Assembly: GCA_020055645.1 (NCBI GenBank)
Contig: CM034547.1
Location: 70,218,884 to 70,282,883 of the forward strand
Origin: Tomocerus qinae
Taxonomy: Eukaryota > Arthropoda > Collembola > Entomobryomorpha > Tomoceridae
Length of the DNA stretch: 64,000 nucleotides
Direction of reading: 5' to 3'
Shown here: positions 10,114-59,734 of the stretch, piece by piece
Numbering within the stretch: position 1 is the first letter of the stretch
Layout of the letters: each line of letters opens with the position of its first letter
Translations under genes and position numbers: made by a program
The notes under the pieces: generated by a model
Database searches by the model: none
What the model saw: the letters and a program-made list of their open reading frames with translations, nothing else
Told to the model about the DNA's origin: nothing

Positions 10114-12420
10114 TTACCGATTCTCTACTTTCGTCTTAGATGCAAGCCATACAGTTCCCAAATCAATTTCCAATTGCCTGTAATGTTATACAAAAATGTA
10201 AATCACCATTAAGAAAAATGCAAGCTAAATGAATTACTATTGCTACCTCTTTTCTGTTTCAATCAATTCCAGTCGCTTAGACTTTTCACTGATTATTTCT
10301 TTAAGATTTGATGTTTCTTCCCGATGCCTGTCGCCGATAGACTCCAATATTTTTTCCAGCTCTTTACATTGATGAATAAGTTTATTCATTTCTTGCTGAT
10401 GCAGATCTTCCATAATCTGTGCAAGTCACATAGTACACATAGGTAGTATTTAATGCTTTGTGATATCATATAATTATATTAATTACCATTTGCACTTTAT
10501 TCTACATATTAATGCATTTATAAATTTATTGCGCATCAAACGACCTACGTCTAGTTGCCATTTTGTTATTACTGATGCCTTTACAATACATTAGTCAATT
10601 ACTCATTTTAATGAGCGAACGACATAACTATCATAATAACGAACCACATTGATTACTTAACTTAATATAAAATGATATACCTTGTTTTTGCCCTGGAGCT
10701 CAGCAACCAGTTCAGTTTCCTTGGATCGAAACAACATCATACGTTCGTTTACTGATATCTGTTCTTGCAATGCCTTGTCTATAGAATCTCGCTCCGAAAT
10801 TACTGCTTGTGCTAATTCCATCATTTCATTTACTGTGGCTGACGTGGCCTCACCAGACTTAGCTGCATCGCGTAGCTTTTTTTGAAATTCTTTGATCTGG
10901 CCTTCCTTGATTCTATAAAAATAATGTTCAATAAAAAATGTAGATAATATTCTATGCCTATTTCAATATCTATGACAAGTTTGTAATTGATTAAACTACA
11001 TACAAAATCGTTTCTTCCAGTGTCTTTAAATCTTCTAGTAGATTTCCATTTGTAGCTTCTAACTCTGTGGCTTCTTCCACTAATCTTTGTCTTTCTTTTT
11101 CTAATGCAGAGTTTTTATCTTGTAAAATAATTCTTTCTTCGTTATAACTTAATTTTAAATCTTCAAACAACCTGAAAAATAAAAATACAGTATACAGCAA
11201 CACCAAAAAATGCTTATTATAAGACAGTCACGATGTTATTTGTGATATCATTTGTTTTTAGATTCGTCAAACTACGTGTAATTCCAAATGAGAAAAAAAT
11301 AATAACATAGTTTTAATTCAGTGAGTCAAATACAATTAAAAATGTGTATTACCTCTTACACTCGTACACAGATGACTCATGGTCTTCTCTGGGTATCCGC
11401 CTATCAATCATGTCCGTCATTTTCGCAATTTGATCAGTAAGCATAGCACAGTGGGTTTCCAGCTGATTGTAACTAGTTTTAAAGTTGGATTGACTTTCCT
11501 TTAAATCTTTTACCCGACCATTCAACTTGGAAACTACATATATGCATATTGTTGAACTTATAAGTAAATTGTTATGCATAGCTATTGTAGTATTTTTATA
11601 TTATATTAAGTTAGGCGTTTTTGTTAATTATAAACATTTCTACCTTTACCTGTTTCATTATGGGTAGTTTTCAGAGAATCGATTTTATTTTTAAGAGCTT
11701 TTACTTGTTCCGAAAGCTTATCGTTCTGCTCTAATACCAATGCAGCGTTGTCGTAAAGTACATGCCACTCTTCCTTCGATACTGAACCCTAAAAATTAAA
11801 TAAACACACTTTAAATGAACAAATGGAAAAATAAGTTAAATTATAAAATTGATAAAATAGTAAAAAATTATTAAGCGTATTTGTTACTAAGTTTCACTAC
11901 CTTTTGCTTGGACCATGCCACTTTTTTACGCAATTCTTCGTTTTCTTTCACAATTTCTTGCCTTTGAGTTCTGATTCGTTCTAAGGCTGCTTCTTGGCTT
12001 TTAATTATTTTGTCTTTCTGTTGTATAGTTTCGTCATAGGCAGCCAACAGTGGTTTCAAATTTTTCCTTGGTTCCTTTAACCAAGCATCGGATTCTTTCT
12101 CGGGTTTATTCCTTTTGTCGTCAAATTCTGTCGGCGAGGTCGGTCCGGATGATGTGTAAATTGGTATCTCATCGGGCTTTGAAAGATACTTTAGGTGGAG
12201 CTTGTCTTTATAAAAATTCATTTCCTTCGTAAGACGATGAATTACAGATTTCAAAACATCCATATCTTCAGTTAAATTTTTATTTTCTTTGGCCAATGAT
12301 GTTGCTATCATTGCTATATTCTTATTTTGCTGTCTTTGTGATTTGCTAGTTGCCATTTTATTGGACCCCTTCGGATTTGTAACAACAAGGTAAACGAATA
12401 AGGCAGTTTTCATTGGCTTT
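10114..12420 (-). CDS. CEP89: CEP89 (CCDC123) homologue, centriolar coiled-coil protein
   Basis: Seven minus-strand exons join in frame: 12420-11901, 11788-11650, 11533-11353, 11171-11004, 10912-10681, 10416-10247 and 10177-10114, all with GT-AG borders and consistent phases. From the ATG at 12413 this gives 488 residues, shorter than the vertebrate protein of about 780. Family marks seen are the LKSVIHRLTKEM segment (about 54-65), LKPLLAAYDETI (119-130), EEWHVLYDNAALVLEQN just after the first junction (from about 177) and a C-terminal ELEVIWESTF-like end (here LEIDLGTVWLASKTKVENR). Nearly the whole protein is predicted coiled coil. CEP89 is known as a distal-appendage protein of the mother centriole needed for cilium formation. 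The exon at 12420 follows a strong acceptor (TTTTTTGCAG), so an upstream noncoding or coding exon is likely. A second in-frame ATG (MATSK, residue 20) could be the true start. Family assignment is from memory. Confidence 0.85.
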
Positions 12421-15187
12421 CTGCAAAAAACAAGAAATATTATAATGACAAATGGTTAATTTTGAAAAATCTTTTTCAAAACTTCCAATTACATTCTATT
12501 TCCGTTTTTAAATGTTCTGAATAATAGATACAAAAGCAAAAATATTTATTTCAATTTGGTAATAGTAATTTTACACTTTCAGTTAGAGGCTGGACCTTTC
12601 TTGTGGTTGATGATTTTCAACAATAATAACAGCTAATGCAGACGGAATTAGATGGACTTCTTAACTCCTAGTCTGACGGCCACCTGGGCCACATAAAAAT
12701 GAGAAATGCGTAATTCAATCACTGTCAATCGAACACTACAAAACTAAAATAAAACTAAACTATTTTTTTACTACAAATGCAAATGACAAACAATACCACA
12801 CATAACACATGCAATCACACAAAATCCCACAAGCATAAACTAAACAACTTTTCGAATATGCCACGTAAACGAGGAGTCTGTCTATTATTCGCTCAATCTA
12901 GTCGTTATTGTACATTCATTTCAATGCATTAAACTGAAAATTCAAAATAAAATATTTTCTTTTATTCCCTACTCAAAATCAAAATTTTCAAATTGAATAT
13001 TTGATGAAAAATGATTTTCAAAAATTGGGTTTCATGTTCTTAAGAATCTTGGTAGATTCTGAAACTTAAAACCGAAGTACTGTACGTTTAGCCGATTTCT
13101 CTGGACAATATTCGCTAAAACATTAAGGTCCTACCCTCCCCCCCCCCCACACCTCCTAAATCGGATGCAGGTGAACTAGTGAACTGGCCTGAAACCACTA
13201 CATAATTTACTAGGTACTACTAGGTACATAAATTTACTACTAGGTAGAGGTGATTTGTTATAATGACAAAGGTGAACTGTTCTAATATCAGAGGTGATCT
13301 GTTCCAAAGAGAAAGCGATATAGTTTCGGGGCTTTGGTACTATTGGTACTGGCTAAGTTCAACTTGACATTGGGCATGCATAATGTATACAAGACCTGAA
13401 ATTAATTAAAATATGGAATACAATTGTCAAAAGTAGTACTAGAAGTATTAGAGCAGTGCACCTCTGCCATTGGAAGAGTCCGCCTTCGTCATTGGAACAA
13501 ATCACCTTTTCCTTTTTAGACCAGTTTCTCAGATCAGTTCACCATATACCCCTAAATCTGTAGAAAAGTGATATTATTCCCAGCTGTATGTACCTATTTA
13601 AGTACATTTGAAGGACTAAGAACTCTTAGATCACACAAAAAGGTAGTCATTCATGTAGATCTATGCAAAATCTCATTTGGATCTTTCAAATGGTTAATAT
13701 ACAATGGACTACATATTATACGAAGAGAAACCGTGTATATAACTAAACATAATCTGTGAACGTCTTAGGATCAAGGTTATCATGTCATTATAAATGTCAA
13801 CGTAATTAATGATTGTCGTAAAAGTTAGATCATTCAGTCTGTTTCACTACGTTACTGCTGTAATTGACTTACGGTAAATGACTCTTTCGAATATATACAG
13901 TGACAACAGTGATGCTGGTTCGTAATTCCCAGAGCTGGCCAATTAACATAGTATCTTCTGTTCTTCCTCATGTAGACGATTTATTTTCTTCAGGTTTCTA
14001 CAGAATTGTCTTACCAACTAGTACTATATTGGCCATTGTAGGACATAATATTATCACATAAATTGCATTTGTTTTTCAAATGCATTTCATTTCGCATTTC
14101 AGCAAAAAGCAAAAAGCAACGTCCATTGCATAGATAAACACATGCGACATAGGAAATTATTATTTTTATATAGATGATGATACATTACATACGTTCTTGC
14201 GCGTCGTAACACAAAGATCCATGGCATAGAACATAGACACACATATACCTGTACCTACATACATGCGACATAGGTATAGGTACAAGTTACAATCAGCTTT
14301 ATTAATTGTGAGATTTTTTTTAAATTTTGGGATTGAAAGTTATGACTTACCATTTAACCCACTTACGATGCAATAACCATACAATTATATGGGCATATTA
14401 GCCCTGCATGATTGTTTTGCGTAAGATAACATTAGTCTCCAGTACATGATTATCAATACGTATGTATTAATAAGTCTTCTGCAAATATTTTACTAAGTTT
14501 AGCTTAAGCGTGATATAAAGTTGATCTCAGAAGGAGCCACACCTTATGATTATACATTTACATTTCATCTCTTTCAGTTTCGCTACATTATTATAAGTAC
14601 GTCTACCTTATATTATGCCGACGTATAGACGTAGTTCCCCTTATGTATTGGCTGTATTGTATTGTGGTATTTATCCATCTTAATGTCTATTCTATAATGT
14701 ATAATGCATAGTAAATTCCAACAATAAAATATTAGCCTTTAGTTTAGGCGTTGTTGTGTTTGGTTTAGGAGGACCTACCTATTTTGCGTCAATTAAGGTA
14801 CGCAAAAAATTAAAAATAGCTCAGAGGCATGGCTGGATATGCTCAAAAGAAGTTTGCATTGAAAAACTTGCCAAATCCTTTTGATTTTTGTATTTTTGTG
14901 GTGTTCTAATAAATGAAAATCCTTTTGTGTCTGTACACTGCTCTGTTCATGCATTTACATCTTTTGCAAATGTATATACTCACTCACACACATTTTTGCA
15001 AGACTTAAGATAATCCTGTGGAGTTGCGCGTGCTAGTCTGCGATTTTAGTGCCCCAATGAAATAAGAAGTTTGGTATATTATTCTATCTACATGATTGTT
15101 GAGTGTTTAATAGCTTTATTATGGCGCTTCAACTGCATACTTTACCCTGCAATCTGTAAAAATATACACATTTTTGATGTTTGTACA
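12421..15187. other. intergenic, upstream of CEP89
   Basis: No recognisable coding sequence. The stretch should hold the CEP89 promoter and any 5' noncoding exon. It contains a run of C at about 13138-13148 and the inverted pair of 22-bp arrays at 13160-13550. The rest is A+T-rich with nothing I can assign. Confidence 0.5.
13160..13550. repeat. foldback element built of 22-bp tandem units in opposite orientation
   Basis: Three head-to-tail 22-bp units start at 13248, 13270 and 13292, each of the form AGGTGATCTGTTCYAATGNC. Three units of the same sequence lie in reverse complement at about 13440-13505. Outside them, a further imperfect match pairs 13169-13195 with about 13515-13545. The result is a hairpin of roughly 390 bp with a unique centre. 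It encodes nothing. A nonautonomous foldback transposon is the likeliest origin. Confidence 0.55.
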
Positions 15188-27135: not shown

Positions 27136-27297
27136 TTTTAGTGTGTTTTTGATTTGTCTTCTACCAGTGACCTGAGACCTGCAACCTGAGGGAGAAAAAT
27201 TACAGCTTTGAATTTTGACAACTGCAATACACCTTCAATCTTTGATGACTAGACCTAAGCCATTGTTGGTTTGATGAAGACTGAGATAGTAATAATA

Positions 27298-27716
27298 GAC
27301 GTTTCCCACAATTCCAGGATAACACAGGCAGGTACTGTAGTCATTTCAATACCTATTCATATTAATTTAGTGACCGGTCACCAATTGTGGGAAACCTCTA
27401 TTGATTTTATTTATAATATTGAATATAGTTTTTAGTACAAAATAAATACAAGTTAATGGTTAAAGAGCAAATCGAGTACCAACAATCCACAATCCGTTTT
27501 GTGTTAAGCAGAGTTCAAGCTGTTCCAGGAGTACTCTGCATTCAGTATTCGTTGTTCGTCACTTTTCAGCTGTCCAATACAGAAATCCACAGGTCCTCGG
27601 TTCAAGCTTCCAATAGATGTTTCCCACAATTGGTGACCGGTCACTAAATTAACATGAATAGGTATTGAAATGACTACAGTACCTGCCTGTGTTATCCTGG
27701 AATTGTGGGAAACGTC
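27298..27716. mobile_element. TA-flanked nested foldback element (Tc1/mariner-type MITE candidate)
   Basis: Arms of 106 bp at 27298-27403 and 27611-27716 are near-identical inverted copies around a 207-bp spacer. Both outer ends are flanked by TA (27296-27297 and 27717-27718), as expected of Tc1/mariner-type insertion. Each arm is itself bounded by an inverted pair of GTTTCCCACAATT, so the motif occurs four times. It encodes nothing. Either two copies of a 106-bp element sit head to head, or one foldback element has composite ends. Confidence 0.7.
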
Positions 27717-28473
27717 TATTTTTCAATCGACGACATCCAACTATCCAACATCAGGAAAAACTTCGTCATTCGTCCAATAATCATCTGGGTTTTTTTATTG
27801 CATCATATCACAAAATTTGGTCTTTCCCGGTAAACCAAACTAAATGGGGCACTTTGATAATTTTCACCAGAGATGAATGATACCTTATACTTATATCATC
27901 ACGTGCAAAAGAGATGATAAAATCGGTTGATCAGATCGGTGAAAGCTTTAGTGAAAGTTTACAGAAATTTTTATTCATTGCACTAGAAATTGTATTGAGT
28001 GAATAAGTGAGTAATACAAGCATGAGAATTTTAAAGTATTTATATGATAATAATTATTGAGTAAGTCATACAATAAGCAATATTAATATACGTGACAATC
28101 AAACTTTCCGTTTTCTTCTACCATGACTGCACTACATAATGTGTCCCTTTCTGTACATGACCAGTACTTTTTTTGGTCTTTGAATTCTTTAACTATAAAT
28201 ATAACCGTTTCTGGCCAGTTGTTGGGTCACTTTGTTCTTCGTTTTAGAAGTAAATAAAGTACAATACGATGCCATTTTTTTCCTTATGTATTATTGTGTT
28301 GTGCACAGCCTCAAGTTGGAGTCTACGACTTACCTTCTATTCCCTCTTGCATTCATTATCAGCAATCTAAATATCTGATAATAAAATGGTAATCTACCAA
28401 GGCAGTAACTTAGATTAGGAGAGAAAAAAATGCAATATCTTAAATGAACTGTATAACGTAAATTGCCCACAAT

Positions 28474-28498: not shown

Positions 28499-28500
28499 GT

Positions 28501-28681
28501 GTTGACAAAAAGGTGTTGACAAAAAACCGTTAAAAATGTTGTTAACAAAAAGGTGTTGACAAAAAACCGTTAAAAATGTTGTTGACAAAAAGGTGTTGAC
28601 AAAAAACCGTTAAAAATGTTGTTGACAAAAAGGTGTTGACAAAAAACCGTTAAAAATGTTGTTGACAAAAAGGTGTTGACA
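28501..28681. repeat. 40-bp tandem repeat, 4.5 copies
   Basis: Units begin at 28501, 28541, 28581, 28621 and 28661 (the last cut at 21 bases). Each unit contains GTTGACAAAAAGGT followed by a longer relative that starts GTTGACAAAAAACCG. Only one base differs among the copies that I can see (GTTAAC at 28541-28546), so the array is recently expanded or kept uniform. It has no open frame of note. Confidence 0.9.
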
Positions 28682-29299
28682 ATTAGGGGTTCTTCCATAT
28701 AACAATATTATGTTTGTGCAACAAATAAACGATTAATAACTTGAGTTCTTCATCCTCTTTGTTTTAAAAACTCGACTAATGCAATAGCCGTCGCGTGCAA
28801 TGTTAGTCAATGTTATGGTGAAATAAAGAATTCATAAAATCATTAACTGATTACAGCTTTAACACTTTTAATGCTTTCAAAATCGAAAATGATTGGAGAT
28901 CAACATTTTAATTAGGTTTTCATGGCTTTTGTTGATGTACATGTATTAGCACAGACAGAGATACTGTTAGTTATAGCATCCAAGAGATAGGAAATAGTAA
29001 GCACCTTGTACGCGTGTACAGATTGGCATTTCGCTTCTTCATGGCAGTCAATTATAGTGTCGCGTCGCGATTGCATTGTAAATACACCACAAAAGGGTAG
29101 TAATTTTGAGATAGTGCTGTAAATAAGCATGGTGAAGTTAATTTGATTTGATAATTAGTTAAGAGAGGTTGTTAAACAAGGAACTTGATACTGTAATTGT
29201 AAAATTGTAAGTATTTAAATGTACAGGAAAGTCAAATCTAAATTATTCAGATCAGAAGAAACTGCAAATCGGCATTGATTAAACATTCAAATAACATTT

Positions 29300-46597: not shown

Positions 46598-46993
46598 ATT
46601 AAGGGTGGTTATTAGCGGGGTAGCTTGAGCATACAGTTTGTGTGTATTACTTAGGATTAGAGTGTAGCCCGTATTTATTTACCGAAAGTCTTCAAAATTT
46701 CCAAAAAGTGTCGGAAGGTGAGCATCTCGGACTTGTGGTTCAGAAAAATTTGAAATTTCTAATAAGTTTTAATTATAGCGTTGGCGAGAAGTCGTGTTTT
46801 CTCGCTGACGTTATATTTCAAAAGGGATTAATTTTTTTATTTTATATTTCGGAGATACAAGTTCCAGATTCACCTTCCTCCACTTTTTGGAAATTTTGAA
46901 AACTTTTGGTAATTAAATATAGATTACACATTATTCCTTCATAATACACTCAAAGTGTATGCTCCAGTTACCCCGCTAATAGCCACCCTTAAT
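46598..46993. mobile_element. 396-bp TTAA-bounded foldback element (piggyBac-type MITE candidate)
   Basis: The left end ATTAAGGGTGGTTATTAGCG is matched in reverse complement at the right end with one mismatch, and the pairing continues for about 170 bases per arm (for example TTCAAAATTTCCAAAAAGTG on the left against the same string on the opposite strand at the right). The centre near 46790 is again palindromic (GGCGAGAA...TTCTCGCT). TTAA lies at both ends (46599-46602 and 46989-46992), the target of piggyBac-type elements. The open frame inside the left arm (46642-46899) is a by-product of the palindrome. Confidence 0.7.
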
Positions 46994-53091: not shown

Positions 53092-54817
53092 CTTAAGGGG
53101 GTCTCTATAGAAACCTTGAGCATTAGTACAATGTAACTGTGCATTTGCAATGCATTCTACTCTGCTCTGGCATAGAGTTGATGTTTTTATACAGTGCAAG
53201 CATGGTTAAATTCAATTGGATCATTTGATGCATGATAATATAACAGATTTATTATTAAGTAATCCCTGTACTAACCGCAAGTAATAAACAGTGATTTTTT
53301 GATTGCCTTAATCTCTCGCAAAGATGTCCTGCTGGTATTTGAATTGCTATTCCCACACATGCATCTTTAATGCCGGCCACTGAGTACCATTGGAACATTT
53401 ACTCAAGTTTTTAAGAGTATTATTGTCGTGCATTCCAATCACTGCAGTATCTTGAAAGGTAGTGAGTGTAAATAGCACCGAGAGCGGTGCGTGGTTGAGT
53501 GTTTGGTCTAATTTTGGTCAGGCCTAGTGGAGGAGAAATGGATGAATGAATGAAAGTGAGCTCCATAAATATGCCATAATGATTGTTATTTGAATCCGGT
53601 CACACATTTCTGTCCATGCAACGGCTTTGAATATCTCAGTAATGCATGGCGAGGAGGGAAGTGGCGGTGGCAGGTAATGCAAGTCAACTGGAGCATTCAA
53701 GTGAATGGAACTGCTTGAAATATGATTTCCATAAAAATAATCACCTACTTGTGCTAAAAGCAACACCTTTTCTGTGTGAGTCGTCAAGCTTCAACTCGTA
53801 ACACTCCCACTCCACACACTGCTCTCTGATACTACTATACTTAACATACATTCTACTATATACATTGGGTATAGCATTTCACGCTGACATCAATAGACCT
53901 GAAATTAAATGGCCATAGCAAACAAAACCAAAGGTTAGAGGACTATCAGTGTCCACATCAAAGTTCATTCATTTCGAAAGTATTCATTCCCGACAGGTTT
54001 TGTACTATAAGGGAGAATAACCGTACACAATGAATAATAAGGAAAAGCGGGGAAAGTATTTGTCACAGAAAGAGAAAACTTTCACAATCTAACGAAACAA
54101 AGTTTACTTTCCTCGTAAGAAACACGGATGCACAAATAACTGAAAGTATATTTACTCGTTCACCAGGATTCAGTTATAGTTATTGAGGGTAATTTGTTTT
54201 GTTGCATGGCCATAGCACTTTCATATTATTTGTCAACTGTGGAAATACTAAACACAAATACTATTCCAATATGTCACTACTTAATACTACACCAAGTGCT
54301 CGTATCAATAGTGTCGTGCACCCAAGTTGAGACACCAGCCAGACGTGCAAGAAAAGAAATTCTGTCTATTTCTATTTCTACAATACATAGACAGAAATAG
54401 CTGAAACATAAACAGATGATTTTGTATAGTAGTTCGGTGTATTAAGTATATAGTTGGAATTAATATTTGTGTAATGTGGTGGCAGTAATATTATGGGAAT
54501 GGGAATTGATAAGTCTCTCTACTGAATCCTCGTAGTCTGTCTTAGCGCAAACAACTAAACTTTCCAACATGCACATTTGGGACACAAAGTTTCATATTTC
54601 AGGTCCGACTAATCAGTCTGCCGTTGTTAATCCCTGGTGTGTATTTTTACATGCCTGGTTGAGGATATACAGACAAGACAGAATTCTGGAACATGAAAGA
54701 ATCATCTCAGTGTTTTGCAACATTTCAAATTCGAACTAAACTTTTCGGCGAGGACTCGCAAAACCCTTTGATGAAAACTTGTCTGAGTTATATAAAAATA
54801 AACAAAAGCATGAAAAC

Positions 54818-55790
54818 TGTTCAAGCACGTTTTGTAATTTTTATCTAGTAGTAAGTATGCATGTTTGTGTGAGTCAATTTAGTGTACTTTCCTCAATGTA
54901 TTATGACATTTTTGCTCACAATTTCTATATTTATTAACTTAATTGAATTTTGTTCTGATACGATTGTTCAGTATATTTTTAGCTATTTTTTGATACCTTA
55001 CTTGCCCTCCTAGGTCAAGGTTCAAGGAATTTAAAATGGGGTGCTCCGTCATGTTAGGAGTAACCCATAATTTTCATGCATCCATCACAAGGCTGCATCC
55101 ATCACAATGCAGTGTAAGTGTAGCTGCATCCATCACAAGATGCGTGTATTTAAGCCTAAGCTCATTGAGCCGTGTAAATTAGTATAGACTAGTAACTAAA
55201 CATTGCGATGTAGTTTTTACATACCTAGCTATAAGAATCCAGCAATTTACCTACTAGAACCCAGCAACCTATGTTAAGCTTATGGATCTGGAACCTGCAA
55301 ATTCCAGCATCCATTCCTATTAAATTGTAATATAATTTAGCGCTAATATTAAATAATAAGCACATTTCTAAGCACGTCTAATCTAATACAGCGAACCATG
55401 TTCAAACCAGCCAGTCTTCTACGCGAGCTCCCAGAGTCAACACGACTAACTGCTCACCTGCGGCATTGTGCCAATATTTTCTAAGCGTCCTAGTGACATC
55501 GCGGCCTAGTGCCATTATAGTTAATTGCGGACATTTGGTCCACCTATTTTAAATAAGCAAATTGTGTGTGTGTGTGCCCTTACGGAAATAAATTGTGTGA
55601 AAGGTAAAATACCCAGTTTACACTGACATATTTATTTTATCCTTACACATCATACATATCACGCACAGCATCAACAACCATCATTGATCAGTGGCAATAG
55701 TTTGGCTGCATCAAATAGACTTAACCCTTGACACTTCCACTGCCTGGGACACAAGACACAGCTGCACGCATTACCTAACTGTGGTAAACA
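54818..55790 (+). repeat. 5' LTR of the BEL/Pao element
   Basis: A 973-bp LTR bounded by TG...CA. It holds a TATA-like TATTTAAG at 55147-55154 and AATAAA at 55587-55592, which would place the transcription start and poly(A) site in the usual order. A (GT)n run lies at about 55564-55575. It is the direct copy of 58757-59729. Confidence 0.95.
55078..55138 (+). repeat. three copies of GCATCCATCACAA upstream of the LTR TATA box
   Basis: Copies at 55078-55090, 55095-55107 and 55126-55138 lie just before the TATTTAAG box, with the same three in the 3' LTR. Repeated short motifs at this position often bind transcription activators; that role is inference. Confidence 0.6.
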
Positions 55791-55793
55791 TTT

Positions 55794-55811
55794 TGGTCCT
55801 TCGTATGCCAG
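55794..55811 (+). promoter_or_regulatory. primer-binding site of the retrotransposon
   Basis: TGGTCCTTCGTATGCCAG starts three bases after the 5' LTR. TGG matches the CCA end of a tRNA, and TGGTCCTTCG is a start I recall from other BEL/Pao elements. Which tRNA primes it is not settled here. Confidence 0.65.
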
Positions 55812-56127
55812 ATCACTGACAGCAATCAGTGGTCTAGTGATTGAATAGTTTTGTGTGCCTATGGACCTCTGGAAGTTAAAAGTGCCATTTTTAGACAATT
55901 AAGCATTGTCATTTCACAAATCAAGCCGCACGCCGCCGTTGGAACGGATACAAGTAAGCCTGTGTCATCTCGTCTCCAGTCGGTCACCTATCGTCAGTCG
56001 TCTCAGTCTCATCTCGTGTCACAGTGCCCCGTCCCAACAAGCAGAGATCCTTGAATCCCGCAAGATTCAAAAATAAAAACATTGGTGTCGGATTTTTAAT
56101 ATATTTTGTTAGTGTCAGTTCATAAAA

Positions 56128-57114
56128 ATGAATTCACTAGTTAATAAACGTAGTGCACTCATCGCAAAGATTGACGTTCTGAAGCAGATCGTCGATCAAC
56201 ATTCTACTGCCCCTCTGGATGTGCTAGATGTCCAACACCACCTTGAGAAGATCAAGGAACATGCAACAAATAACGACAAGATATTTGATGAGATCGCCGA
56301 CAAATGCAAAGCTGAGTCAGAAATCATGACTCATCATCTGGTCTACGACGCGGAAGATAAGAAGCTTGCAGCAATCAAGAAAGGACTGCTAATTATCTCA
56401 GCGACCTTCCCGTCCACGACAACTACAACAACAACTACTGCAACGGCCACACCTGCAAGTGCCGACATTAAATTGCCGAAGTTGGAGCTGCCAACTTTCT
56501 CCGGAGAAAGTCATGAGTGGCTTTCTTTCCACGATCTGTTCGTTGCCAGCGTACAGAATAACGCCAAGCTCTCAGGAGCACAGAAGCTACAGTACCTGAA
56601 AGGTGCACTAAAGGATGAGGCTGCCAACCTCATCAAGAATATTACGTTGACCGACAGCAACTTCGACGTGGCCTGGAAGACACTCCAGACACGCTACGAA
56701 GATAAGAGAGAACTCATCCGCAGCCAGTTGGATCGTCTTCTCTCTCAGCCCAGCCTCACACAGGAGAACCCGACAGCTCTCCGCAAATTAGCAGACACGA
56801 CGAGTGAATGCATCCAGACACTGGATGTCCTGAAGATTACGCCTGAAGAAACCAGGGACCTTCTCATCATTCACCTAGTCACCAAGAAAATCGACCAGGA
56901 GTCACGCCTACAGTGGGAGAAAAAGGTAAAATCAGATGCCATTCCCACCCTAAAGGAATTTTTGGAATTCCTTATTGAACACGCACGAGTCACCGCCGCG
57001 GCCAAGATTGTCACCACCACACCACAAGCCTGCAAGCCAAAAGGGACAATCAGCGACTCAACCCAGCAAGCAATTTTCGTCTGCAGTGCACCACAGCCAC
57101 ACCGGGGAGTCTAG
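56128..57114 (+). CDS. gag: Gag of BEL/Pao element (DUF1759 type)
   Basis: The ATG at 56128 opens 328 codons to TAG at 57112-57114. The N-terminal 95 residues are helical and charged. A threonine run (about 96-106) follows. The DUF1759 capsid-like region starts at KLPKLELPTFSGESHEWLSF (about 113) and includes LKGALKDEAANLI and WKTLQTRYED. This is the structural protein that packages element RNA. The frame closes just before the zinc knuckles, which lie in the next frame, so as read the Gag lacks its RNA-binding part. In related elements Gag and Pol are usually one frame. The last 30 or so residues, after about residue 303, look unlike the family and are probably out-of-frame reading. Confidence 0.9.
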   Translation: MNSLVNKRSALIAKIDVLKQIVDQHSTAPLDVLDVQHHLEKIKEHATNNDKIFDEIADKCKAESEIMTHHLVYDAEDKKLAAIKKGLLIISATFPSTTTTTTTTATATPASADIKLPKLELPTFSGESHEWLSFHDLFVASVQNNAKLSGAQKLQYLKGALKDEAANLIKNITLTDSNFDVAWKTLQTRYEDKRELIRSQLDRLLSQPSLTQENPTALRKLADTTSECIQTLDVLKITPEETRDLLIIHLVTKKIDQESRLQWEKKVKSDAIPTLKEFLEFLIEHARVTAAAKIVTTTPQACKPKGTISDSTQQAIFVCSAPQPHRGV

Positions 57115-58486
57115 CCCCAAGAAACAATCGTGCACGTTTTGCGGCGAAAACCACCATATATTCACATGTGCAGCATTTCGTGAACTAACCGTTGATGACA
57201 GAATCAATGGAGCCAAAAGCAAAGAGCTTTGCTTTAACTGCCTAGGGATTGGACACCGATCTGAACAATGCAAGAAGATAAGATGTATCAAGTGTTCCAG
57301 CCCTCACAATCGCCTACTGCACAAGGAGAAAGCATCTCAGCAACAAACAAGCACGCAACAGGAGGATACTTCTTCGGCGACGCCTCCCGAAGACCCTCCT
57401 AAATCTAACTTCTTCTCTACACAAGCCCAGAAAACCCAGCAAGTGCTCCTATCTACTGCAATAATTAAAGTTCGAGACAGCAAAGGATGTTTCCAACTCT
57501 GCCGAGCACTTCTGGACAACGGATCGCAATGCTGCCTCATCACGAAGAAGTGCGCAACACGACTCGGTCTCAAGAAAAGACGAGTCAATATCCCTCTGCA
57601 TGGAATTTCAGGAATAGAAGCAGGAATAATTACGGAGAAAGCAGACATCCTCTTCTCTTCCTGCCACAGTGAGCAACCAACTTTCTCCATTGACGTCTTC
57701 GTTCAAGACAAGTTGACGTCCGACTTACCTGTTGCTCCACTCGCGGTCAAGTCATGGCCACATCTGGAAAGGATCACCTTGGCAGATCCTCTCTACCACC
57801 AGCCCGGAAAGATTGACATCATTCTGGGTAACGACATTTTTATGGATCTAATCATAGGCACGAAGCGGGAGGGACCTACTGGATCTCCAACAGCCTTGGA
57901 GACGCACATTGGATGGATCGTCGGAGGAAAAATCGACGACTCCCTCAGACCTGTCCCACCGCCATCAACTCCACGACACCCAAAAAAGGAAAGTGCTGTT
58001 CTCACAGCCGCTGTCGCCTCCACTTCAGGAACTTTCACCGCCACAGCAACAACAGAAGCACTTTCCCCAACTAGCTCAGCAATCAACACGACAGAAGAAG
58101 ATGTTGACGACAACTGCCTTTTCTGTCATCAAATGACACACTACCTACCTGACTGTCAATTCTTTTGGAAAGAATCAGAACGAAGTCAGCGGAAGTTTAC
58201 CGAGAAGCGAAAGCTCTGCTTCTACTGTCTCGGAGCCAACTGCACGGATCCTTTTTGCAAGGCTCAACTGGATCCACCGAAGCAACTCTCCTGCAACACG
58301 GCCATCATTTTGGCAAGCAAGCAACCACAGCCACTCCAAGCCTTGACGACTTTAGTGGCAACCCCGACATACGTCATCCCGCAACGGCGACGACAACTTG
58401 GCGTCAGAGAGCCACAGCTAGGCTCAAGTCGTTGCAAACTCAATTTTGGAACCAGCAGCAGCACCTCTTCACGTCAGCTCAAGTGA
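57047..58486 (+). CDS. zinc knuckles, aspartic protease and a second zinc-knuckle pair
   Basis: This frame, +1 relative to Gag, is open from about 56970 and has no ATG of its own in the overlap, so it needs a frameshift or an undamaged relative to be expressed. In order it encodes knuckles CTFCGENHHIFTC and CFNCLGIGHRSEQC, a CIKCSSPHNRLLH finger, an aspartic protease (ALLDNGSQ active-site motif, ILGNDIFMDLI, ETHIGWIVGG; DUF1758 type), a Ser/Thr/Pro-rich linker, and a second pair, CLFCHQMTHYLPDC and CFYCLGANCTDPFC. Spacing and flanking residues of the second pair copy the first (C.FC...H...C, then K.LCF.CLG), so it is probably a duplication. In the last knuckle the histidine is a cysteine. The frame ends at TGA 58484-58486 with no reverse transcriptase, RNase H or integrase. 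Confidence 0.88.
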   Translation, partial: QSATQPSKQFSSAVHHSHTGESSPKKQSCTFCGENHHIFTCAAFRELTVDDRINGAKSKELCFNCLGIGHRSEQCKKIRCIKCSSPHNRLLHKEKASQQQTSTQQEDTSSATPPEDPPKSNFFSTQAQKTQQVLLSTAIIKVRDSKGCFQLCRALLDNGSQCCLITKKCATRLGLKKRRVNIPLHGISGIEAGIITEKADILFSSCHSEQPTFSIDVFVQDKLTSDLPVAPLAVKSWPHLERITLADPLYHQPGKIDIILGNDIFMDLIIGTKREGPTGSPTALETHIGWIVGGKIDDSLRPVPPPSTPRHPKKESAVLTAAVASTSGTFTATATTEALSPTSSAINTTEEDVDDNCLFCHQMTHYLPDCQFFWKESERSQRKFTEKRKLCFYCLGANCTDPFCKAQLDPPKQLSCNTAIILASKQPQPLQALTTLVATPTYVIPQRRRQLGVREPQLGSSRCKLNFGTSSSTSSRQLK

Positions 58487-58756
58487 AAGTGTTGTAAAAT
58501 ATTTTTATTACTTCATGATATAGTTTTAATTCACTTCTATAGATTAATTTTTGCACGTATGCTCTTATGTCTCCACATATTTATTTTATTATAATGTTTC
58601 CGCATATGTATGTTGGTGAATCCGCATACATTATATTGTTTCCGCATATTTTCATTTTGAGCGTCCACATTAATTTTTATTATTACCTCATATTATTGTA
58701 GCTTGTAAGCAAATATTTCCTTTGTTTTGAAATTGGGAATTTCAAGGCGGGCAGTA
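58487..58756 (+). other. 3' noncoding part of the element with purine-rich tract
   Basis: A 270-bp A+T-rich spacer separates the last coding frame from the 3' LTR. It contains several imperfect repeats of the form TTTCCGCATAT (about 58590-58670). The bases directly before the LTR, AAGGCGGGCAGTA (58744-58756), serve as the expected polypurine tract. Confidence 0.7.
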
Positions 58757-59729
58757 TGTTCAAGCACGTTTTGTAATTTTTATCTAGTAGTAAGTATGCA
58801 TGTTTGTGTGAGTCAATTTAGTGTACTTTCCTCAATGTATTATGACATTTTTGCTCACAATTTCTATATTTATTAACTTAATTGAATTTTGTTCTGATAC
58901 GATTGTTCAGTATATTTTTAGCTATTTTTTGATACCTTACTTGCCCTCCTAGGTCAAGGTTCAAGGAATTTAAAATGGGGTGCTCCGTCATGTTAGGAGT
59001 AACCCATAATTTTCATGCATCCATCACAAGGCTGCATCCATCACAATGCAGTGTAAGTGTAGCTGCATCCATCACAAGATGCGTGTATTTAAGCCTAAGC
59101 TCATTGAGCCGTGTAAATTAGTATAGACTAGTAACTAAACATTGCGATGTAGTTTTTACATACCTAGCTATAAGAATCCAGCAATTCACCTACTAGAACC
59201 CAGCAACCTATGTTAAGCTTATGGATCTGGAACCTGCAAATTCCAGCATCCATTCCTATTAAATTGTAATATAATTTAGCGCTAATATTAAATAATAAGC
59301 ACATTTCTAAGCACGTCTAATCTAATACAGCGAACCATGTTCAAACCAGCCAGTCTTCTACGCGAGCTCCCAGAGTCAACACGACTAACTGCTCACCTGC
59401 GGCATTGTGCCAATATTTTCTAAGCGTCCTAGTGACATCGCGGCCTAGTGCCATTATAGTTAATTGCGGACATTTGGTCCACCTATTTTAAATAAGCAAA
59501 TTGTGTGTGTGTGTGCCCTTACGGAAATAAATTGTGTGAAAGGTAAAATACCCAGTTTACACTGACATATTTATTTTATCCTTACACATCATACATATCA
59601 CGCACAGCATCAACAACCATCATTGATCAGTGGCAATAGTTTGGCTGCATCAAATAGACTTAACCCTTGACACTTCCACTGCCTGGGACACAAGACACAG
59701 CTGCACGCATTACCTAACTGTGGTAAACA
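58757..59729 (+). repeat. 3' LTR of the BEL/Pao element
   Basis: A direct copy of the 5' LTR, 973 bp, with one observed difference (C at 59187). It is followed at once by the target duplication AAAAC. Confidence 0.95.
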
Positions 59730-59734
59730 AAAAC

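What the first reader, a model, noticed from the sequence alone, without database searches (positions are those of the whole stretch)
54813..59734. A young BEL/Pao element that keeps Gag and protease but has no polymerase
LTRs, target duplication, primer site, Gag and protease are all intact in form, yet reverse transcriptase, RNase H and integrase are absent and the element is only 4.9 kb. With one difference in 973 bp of LTR it moved very recently. That points to a mobile nonautonomous lineage that supplies its own capsid and protease and borrows enzymes, rather than to a dead copy.
Basis: partly seen in the sequence, partly recalled or inferred. Interest (0 to 1): 0.72.

Follow-up and report, generated by a model that had tools for sequence, protein, structure and literature searches.

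The report
Pol-less BEL/Pao elements keeping Gag-protease
A young mobile element in an unnamed host genome has lost its polymerase genes but belongs to a lineage that still keeps shell-protein and protease genes under selection, and the same genome holds three further families of this stripped-down design that appear to have arisen separately.

Summary
The element is real: two 973-bp LTRs (1 difference), target duplication AAAAC, primer site, purine tract, Gag (DUF1759), zinc knuckles and aspartic protease, without RT, RNase H or integrase. One detail is wrong: in this copy the Gag-protease frame is shifted; a sister copy is open for 794 aa. It is not a one-off deletion. The same pol-less structure stands at two other insertion sites with their own duplications: a tandem array of three, and a copy about 10% diverged. 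Between array and diverged copy Gag-protease shows dN/dS 0.12-0.17, and copies are mosaics. Three further pol-less Gag-protease families occur (4, 4 and 7 LTR pairs). The four do not form one clade; two are firm sisters of different full-length Gag-Pol elements. Full-length relatives share LTRs with two families over most of the searched LTR, with the third and the window family only in parts. Best reading: a semi-autonomous lineage that makes its own particles and borrows Pol. Wheat has analogues (RLG_Sabrina, RLG_WHAM); I found none described for BEL/Pao in five searches.

The parts
54813..54817 (.). target-site duplication AAAAC, left
54818..55790 (+). 5' LTR, 973 bp, TGTT...AACA
   Evidence: one search shows the first 300 bp
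55794..55803 (+). primer-binding-site-like TGGTCCTTCG; junction AACATTTTGGTCCTTC shared 16/16 with full-length relative L033; tRNA-Tyr is proposed from a recalled sequence (a recalled 20-base pattern had no exact match in the genome)
55804..56127 (+). leader
   Evidence: by position
56128..57114 (+). Gag, first open frame (DUF1759 at 56497-56934); the frame shifts in this copy in the linker before the zinc knuckles
56954..58486 (+). second open frame: zinc knuckle (zf-CCHC match 57230-57277, weak), aspartic protease (about 57440 to 57935, motif LLDNGSQ), then a tail
57936..58486 (+). tail after the protease, where RT would begin; no detectable Pol homology; about 58004-58282 weakly resembles the Gag zinc-knuckle region of other BEL elements
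58744..58756 (+). polypurine tract AAGGCGGGCAGTA
58757..59729 (+). 3' LTR, 973 bp, one difference from the 5' LTR
59730..59734 (.). target-site duplication AAAAC, right

Best explanation
The element is a recent insertion of a semi-autonomous BEL/Pao-derived lineage. The lineage encodes Gag (capsid plus nucleocapsid) and aspartic protease but no polymerase. Its RNA is presumed to be packaged in Gag particles and to be reverse transcribed and integrated by RT, RNase H and integrase of full-length BEL/Pao elements that co-assemble and recognise shared primer-site and LTR signals. Shown: structure, shared junction in copies at three insertion sites, target duplications, near-identical LTRs, mosaic copies, purifying selection on Gag-PR, three other families of the same design in the genome, and full-length relatives with related LTRs or primer site. 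Inferred: co-packaging, Pol in trans, and which partner serves the window family.
For: Same pol-less junction in 5 internal copies at 3 insertion sites with distinct 5-bp duplications; LTR pairs differ by 1/973 (window) and 3/966 (diverged copy D); between window and D the LTRs differ by 16% and the internals by 10.4%. dN/dS of Gag-PR 0.17 (211 codons) and 0.12 (393 codons) for array copy A23 versus D in D's own two pieces, tail 0.32; window versus D 0.26 for the Gag-PR part and 0.23 for the tail. Mosaics: window versus A34 1/1669 differences up to 57459 and 42/1297 after; window versus A23 31/812 inside 56973-57784 and 4/2153 outside. Three other Gag-PR-only families with 4, 4 and 7 LTR pairs; DUF1759 frames of at least 790 aa in 4 of 4, 3 of 4 and 5 of 7 of these. 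dN/dS of Gag-PR 0.19 and 0.12 in two of them. LTR-sharing full-length elements: for L029 78-82% over positions 1-388 of the 404 searched, with Gag-Pol frames of 1733, 1728 and 1733 aa; for L031 76-79% in three pairs 6.4-6.5 kb apart, two of them with frames of 1781 and 1744 aa. Primer-site junction of the window shared with L033, 16/16.
Against: Only 1 of 5 copies of the window family has an open Gag-PR frame, so Gag may also come in trans; gag-less relatives of its LTR have moved recently. No full-length element with an end-to-end matching LTR was found for the window family; about 170 bp of LTR core is shared. Two of the 5 internal copies probably arose by tandem duplication, not transposition (inference). 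Genome searches score only the best candidates, so absence is weak. Nothing here measures expression or movement.
Confidence: 0.85

Rival explanations
1. One-off internal deletion: a full-length BEL/Pao element lost pol after or during a single insertion and is dead.
For: The window copy's Gag-PR frame is broken, and internally deleted BEL copies of other kinds exist in the genome (L034, L035, L038).
Against: The same junction occurs at three insertion sites with different target duplications and in a lineage about 10% diverged internally, under purifying selection.
Confidence: 0.03
2. Fully dependent parasite: the lineage moves with both Gag and Pol from other elements, and the retained Gag-PR is passive baggage or serves only as a packaging sequence.
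For: 4 of 5 copies have broken frames, yet the LTR pairs of the window copy and of D are nearly identical. Related elements of about 4.1 kb (L012-L014) with LTR-core similarity and the same primer-site junction have no detectable Gag (one chance-level hit, E 0.94) and L013 and L014 moved recently (LTRs 100% identical).
Against: dN/dS of Gag-PR 0.12-0.19 in three families (0.26 for the window copy itself against D), and frames of at least 790 aa in 12 of 15 LTR pairs of the other three families.
Confidence: 0.1
3. The pol-less families descend from one ancient pol-less ancestor, and the full-length relatives secondarily acquired pol or Gag by recombination.
For: All four families lose homology to full-length relatives shortly after the protease, L031 and L032 at nearly the same place (22 and 23 residues past the GWI motif); recombination among copies does occur. 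Changes counted on the tree could in part be regains.
Against: The tree forces at least 4 changes; the AU test rejects one clade (p 3.2e-4 with 17 rows; 4.8e-38 with 16 rows) and rejects L029 with L032 (p 1.3e-9). The window family and L029 break elsewhere (about 5-13 and 32 residues), and the tails show no evident likeness in the alignment (not tested further).
Confidence: 0.06

Closest known systems
RLG_Sabrina_SA and RLG_WHAM of wheat (Ty3/gypsy; the first called semi-autonomous in PMC9744471; passages read)
   Same: LTR elements with a GAG-protease ORF only, without RT and INT, thought to be mobilised by a related full-length family (RLG_Wilma).
   Different: Gypsy superfamily in a plant, high copy number; here BEL/Pao, few copies, apparently several origins in one genome.
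RLC_famc1 (Fatima) subfamilies of wheat (passage read in PMC6097303)
   Same: Subfamilies with gag and protease ORFs beside one with RT and INT; complementation suggested by the authors.
   Different: RLC (Copia by that code) in a plant.
TR-GAG elements of plants (passages in PMC8704663)
   Same: LTR element with Gag only; a new insertion was observed in an Arabidopsis ddm1 mutant.
   Different: No protease mentioned in the passages seen; plant; Copia example.
CM-gag of Culex pipiens (title seen only, in the reference list of PMC3286476)
   Same: Animal element said to contain only a gag gene.
   Different: Only the title was seen; superfamily, LTRs and protease unknown to me.
Full-length BEL/Pao elements of the same genome (L033; Gag-PR parts read of L043, L044, L045, L046)
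   Same: Gag DUF1759, zinc knuckles, protease; L033 also shares the primer-site junction and a similar purine tract.
   Different: L033 goes on into RT, RNase H region and integrase in one frame (Peptidase_A17, RVT_1, Integrase_H2C2).

Membership tests
BEL/Pao LTR retrotransposon | LTRs starting TG, ending CA, with short target duplication | tested here: met
   973-bp LTRs TGTT...AACA, 5-bp duplication
BEL/Pao LTR retrotransposon | BEL-type Gag (DUF1759) | tested here: met
   E 1.2e-35, 123 bits, cut-off 25.4
BEL/Pao LTR retrotransposon | aspartic protease | tested here: inconclusive
   Pfam match below cut-off (E 9e-4); but the sister copy A23 aligns with full-length L033 through the whole protease, 48.6% identity over 609 columns of Gag-PR
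BEL/Pao LTR retrotransposon | RT, RNase H, integrase (pol) | tested here: not met
   no Pfam match; matches of the L033 protein stop at its residue 604. It is therefore filed as a BEL/Pao-derived nonautonomous lineage, not as a BEL/Pao element proper
BEL/Pao LTR retrotransposon | RT phylogeny within BEL/Pao | not testable with these tools
   no RT present; a Gag-PR tree places the lineage among BEL elements of the genome, its exact place weakly supported
Semi-autonomous Gag-protease LTR retrotransposon (RLG_Sabrina_SA type) | Gag-PR kept, RT and INT absent in all copies of the lineage | tested here: met
   5 of 5 internal copies are 2.90-2.97 kb without pol match; frame open in 1 of 5; dN/dS 0.12-0.26
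Semi-autonomous Gag-protease LTR retrotransposon (RLG_Sabrina_SA type) | repeated transposition | tested here: met
   three insertion sites with own duplications
Semi-autonomous Gag-protease LTR retrotransposon (RLG_Sabrina_SA type) | mobilised by a full-length partner | not testable with these tools
   candidates with related LTRs exist; cross-mobilisation not shown
LARD (non-coding internal region) | no coding capacity | tested here: not met
   DUF1759 and protease present; L012-L014, partly alike in the LTR, do look like this

The most novel reading that the evidence does not exclude
Division of labour: full-length BEL/Pao elements here encode Gag and Pol in one ORF (L033 and the 1.7-kb-codon frames) and so may make them one to one. 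Gag-PR-only lineages, apparently arisen four times and kept under selection, may be suppliers of surplus Gag and protease for mixed particles, so that the host carries a multipartite retroelement community in which loss of pol is recurrently favoured. In the window family the lost Pol is replaced by a tail with a second nucleocapsid-like zinc-knuckle stretch that could raise RNA capture.
Probability: 0.25. Interest if true: 0.8.

Novelty: new variant of a known kind. Interest (0 to 1): 0.6.

Why it matters
Gag-protease-only LTR elements are described in wheat, where the autonomous partner is hard to name. Here one compact genome holds four such BEL/Pao families that seem to come from different parent lineages, two of them beside full-length elements whose LTRs match over most of the searched length. 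That makes it a natural replicate set for asking why pol is lost while Gag and protease are kept, whether such elements are parasites or co-operators, and how much Gag divergence co-assembly tolerates.

Tried and rejected
Host identity: searches for a genome note with 334.4 megabases (one hit, a moth with 31 chromosomes, does not fit) and for the chromosome lengths (7 papers, none relevant by title); host left unnamed, and 'animal' would be an inference from BEL/Pao (recalled range). tRNA primer: a recalled tRNA-Tyr 3' pattern had 0 exact matches in the genome, so the tRNA assignment stays recalled. tRNA scan of the window: none. Idea that the tail is a remnant of the Pol C-terminus (DUF5641): not supported for the window, L029, L031 or L032 (best hits E above 1); it holds for L034 (E 3e-9; Pfam 0.0011). 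Direct LTR match between the window family and L033: none beyond the primer-site junction. Comparison of A23 with the window copy by pieces gave dN/dS 0.53 and 0.42; not used, because the shifted frames overlap and misalign, as the 35 of 2965 differences between the two internals show. The window-D value 0.26 may be inflated for the same reason. L029 against L042 gave 0 synonymous and 7 nonsynonymous differences, so no ratio. Rows left out of the trees: the window copy, D, A12 and A34 (broken frames), L030 (fragments). L036, L037 and L034 lacked the trimming motif; they went in untrimmed and cut at residue 620. The tree tool warned of long branches (L036, the window family; L031 group with L037 group).

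Literature: searches (67 papers, 25 listed; 734, 20 listed; 86, 20 listed; 60, 15 listed; 1 listed), and passages of PMC3442997, PMC6097303, PMC9744471, PMC8704663, PMC2678813, PMC13195028, PMC3286476, PMC4028053. No listing or passage that I saw describes a Gag-PR-only BEL/Pao lineage; the listings were cut, and the library lacks most subscription journals.
Full report
WHAT IS THERE. The window lies in an assembly of 334,443,149 bases in 115 contigs (window = C2:70218884-70282883). The element runs from 54818 to 59729, with LTRs of 973 bp that differ at one position and a 5-bp duplication AAAAC outside them. After the 5' LTR comes TTTTGGTCCTTCG, a primer-site-like sequence; before the 3' LTR stands the purine tract AAGGCGGGCAGTA. 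Pfam finds DUF1759 (E 1.2e-35), a weak aspartic protease (E 9e-4) and a weak zinc knuckle (E 0.039), and nothing of RT, RNase H or integrase. In this copy the coding region is split over two overlapping frames.

COPIES OF THE SAME LINEAGE. The LTR finds four near-identical LTRs (98.8-100%) in a tandem array on C1:111385915-111398629 (four LTRs, three internal regions) and a diverged pair on C1:132195754-132200652. The array as a whole is flanked by CCTTA, the diverged copy by CACCA, the window copy by AAAAC: three insertion sites. The internal stretch 57800-58756 is found only in these copies (5 of 5 first-look candidates scored, 6 matching pieces). Window and diverged copy differ by 16% in the LTR and 10.4% inside, the diverged copy's own LTRs by 3 of 966, the outer LTRs of the array by 12 of 972. 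Array copy A23 is open for 794 aa; the diverged copy has one in-frame stop; A12, A34 and the window copy are broken, so 1 of 5 is open. The other LTR matches (73-93% over various lengths) are, in the stretches fetched as L015-L028, mostly single or fragmentary.

SELECTION AND RECOMBINATION. Between A23 and the diverged copy, read in the latter's own two pieces, dN/dS is 0.17 and 0.12 for Gag-PR and 0.32 for the tail; between the window copy's second frame and the diverged copy it is 0.26 and 0.23. Both lack pol, so this constraint belongs to the pol-less period if their common ancestor, as parsimony suggests, lacked it too. The copies are mosaics: the window copy follows A34 up to 57459 (1 difference in 1669) and departs after it (42 in 1297; Fisher P 1.4e-14); against A23 the differences crowd into 56973-57784 (31 in 812, 4 in 2153 elsewhere; P 3.8e-14). 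The split points were chosen after seeing the data. This fits template switching between co-packaged RNAs; gene conversion would look alike.

THE SAME DESIGN ELSEWHERE IN THE GENOME. The DUF1759 search listed 150 scored hits of 666 candidates, among them recurrent frames of about 800-885 aa against about 1725 aa for full-length elements. Three families were followed by their LTRs. L029 type: 4 LTR pairs 3.8-4.5 kb apart, frames 798, 798, 798 and 817 aa. L031 type: 4 pairs 3.9-4.0 kb apart, frames 816, 816, 816 and one of 767 with a stop. L032 type: 7 pairs 3.7-3.9 kb apart, of which 5 have frames of 885, 885, 870, 884 and 885 aa, one 699, and one is not among the listed 150; an eighth, truncated pair was left out. 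Of these 15 pairs, 3 were read whole or nearly so (L029, L031, L032) and 3 in most of their coding part (L040, L041, L042); the other 9 rest on spacing and frame length. Target duplications read and 58 output: CAAGG (L031), AGTAG (L032), only four bases GTAT for L029. Within families dN/dS of Gag-PR is 0.19 (L031-L040) and 0.12 (L032-L041); the tails are less constrained (0.55 and 0.60, Fisher P 0.16 and 0.11).

FULL-LENGTH RELATIVES. L033 (C1:86479500-86487500) has one 1630-aa frame with DUF1759, protease, RVT_1, Peptidase_A17 and Integrase_H2C2. Homology of the four families to it stops at its residues 602-656, just after the protease. Among the relatives read, the nearest in Gag-PR are L046 for L029 (66.7% identity), L043 for L031 (59.6%), L044 for L032 (59.3%), and L033 (48.6%) and L045 (47.6%) for the window family. 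LTRs: L029's matches full-length elements at 78-82% over positions 1-388 of the 404 searched (three pairs 6.5 kb apart with frames of 1733, 1728 and 1733 aa); L031's at 76-79% (three pairs 6.4-6.5 kb apart, two with frames of 1781 and 1744 aa); L032's only in a piece of about 110 bp (77%), in two pairs 6.2 kb apart whose gag and pol frames are interrupted. For the window family only an LTR core is shared: 86% over 170 bp with C2:18174509, which lies about 2.5 kb beyond a Peptidase_A17 match in a 1432-aa frame, 90% with C3:826668 and C1:40444394, and, by way of L013, with the pair C5:4414241/4420796 that encloses a 1725-aa Gag-Pol frame. The link to C5 is indirect: its letters could not be fetched.

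ORIGINS. In a Gag-PR tree of 17 rows the 7 rows of the four pol-less families need 4 changes, 4 being the least that well-supported branches force, and the AU test rejects one clade (p 3.2e-4; with 16 rows p 4.8e-38 and at least 3 changes forced). L029 with L032 as one clade is rejected too (p 1.3e-9). L029 is sister to L046 and L031 to L043 with 100/100; L032 lies in the clade of L044, L046 and L035 without a resolved sister; the window family sits on a long branch of weak place (55/73). Counted changes could include regains of pol, which I think unlikely. The ends of local alignment past the GWI(L/V)xG motif are about 5 (L033) or 13 (L045) residues for the window family, 22 for L031, 23 for L032 and 32 for L029. 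I read this as four separate losses; two are firm.

THE TAIL. After the protease the window lineage carries about 180 aa without detectable Pol homology. A search with it listed 50 matches (150 of 201 candidates scored): 10 pieces of the family itself, then 40 weak ones (E 4e-6 to 1e-3, 23-39% identity), several of which lie just behind DUF1759, where the zinc knuckles of Gag stand (for example C1:107040425, C2:68298085, C2:71066509). So it seems to hold a second nucleocapsid-like stretch. In L029 a piece of the tail (685-751) resembles the protease-RT linker of L046 (31%, E 8e-4).

MECHANISM. Established knowledge of LTR retrotransposons (recalled): RNA is packaged by Gag, primed by tRNA at the primer site, copied by RT and inserted by integrase. 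The lineage keeps the cis signals and Gag-PR and lacks the enzymes, yet new copies with target duplications exist; Pol must have come from elsewhere. The related full-length elements with Gag-Pol frames and shared signals are the natural source. Co-assembly is inferred.

RESULTS AGAINST. 4 of 5 copies of the window family are broken. Gag-less relatives of the LTR (L012-L014; L013 and L014 with LTRs 100% identical, own duplications and the same primer-site junction) have moved without any Gag of their own, so Gag in cis is not required for movement in this group. Genome counts are lower bounds because only the best candidates are scored.

COMPARISON AND NOVELTY. Wheat RLG_Sabrina_SA, RLG_WHAM and Fatima subfamilies are the closest in kind (passages), TR-GAG elements come next, and an animal precedent, CM-gag, was seen only as a title in a reference list. 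I saw no Gag-PR-only BEL/Pao lineage in searches. New variant of a known kind.

Noticed in passing
L013 (C4:16744000-16753000), L014 (C1:103049700-103058500), L012 (C4:25205500-25214500): About 4.1-kb LTR elements with LTRs partly like the window's, the same primer-site junction, internal repeats and no detectable Gag; L013 and L014 have 995-bp LTRs identical within and between copies and duplications GAGTC and CCATG. LARD-like and very young.
   Followed up: partly
L034 (C3:9659500-9666000), L035 (C1:94235500-94242000), L038 (C1:119634600-119641200): Other internally deleted BEL/Pao elements: Gag-PR plus parts of Pol, long open frames (937 aa in L034, 1089 aa in L035), LTR pairs 98.98-100% alike.
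   Followed up: partly
C1:111385915-111398629: Tandem array of three internal regions and four LTRs inside one target duplication CCTTA, probably made by unequal exchange between LTRs.
   Followed up: yes
C50:13516-16378 and C12:66017-69159: Two small contigs carry the same LTR fragments with nearly equal identities in opposite orientation, perhaps duplicated or haplotypic contigs.
   Followed up: no
L021:4174-5495: A minisatellite of about 21 bp, open in several frames on both strands; arrays of short units also lie in L015, L019 and L030.
   Followed up: no
window 28500-28682; 46598-46993; 27294-27403 with 27611-27720: A 40-bp tandem repeat (4.6 copies), an imperfect palindrome of about 400 bp (76%) and a 110-bp inverted repeat (98%).
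   Followed up: no
window 11871-12455 (-): A 194-aa open frame rich in charged residues, possibly a host exon.
   Followed up: no
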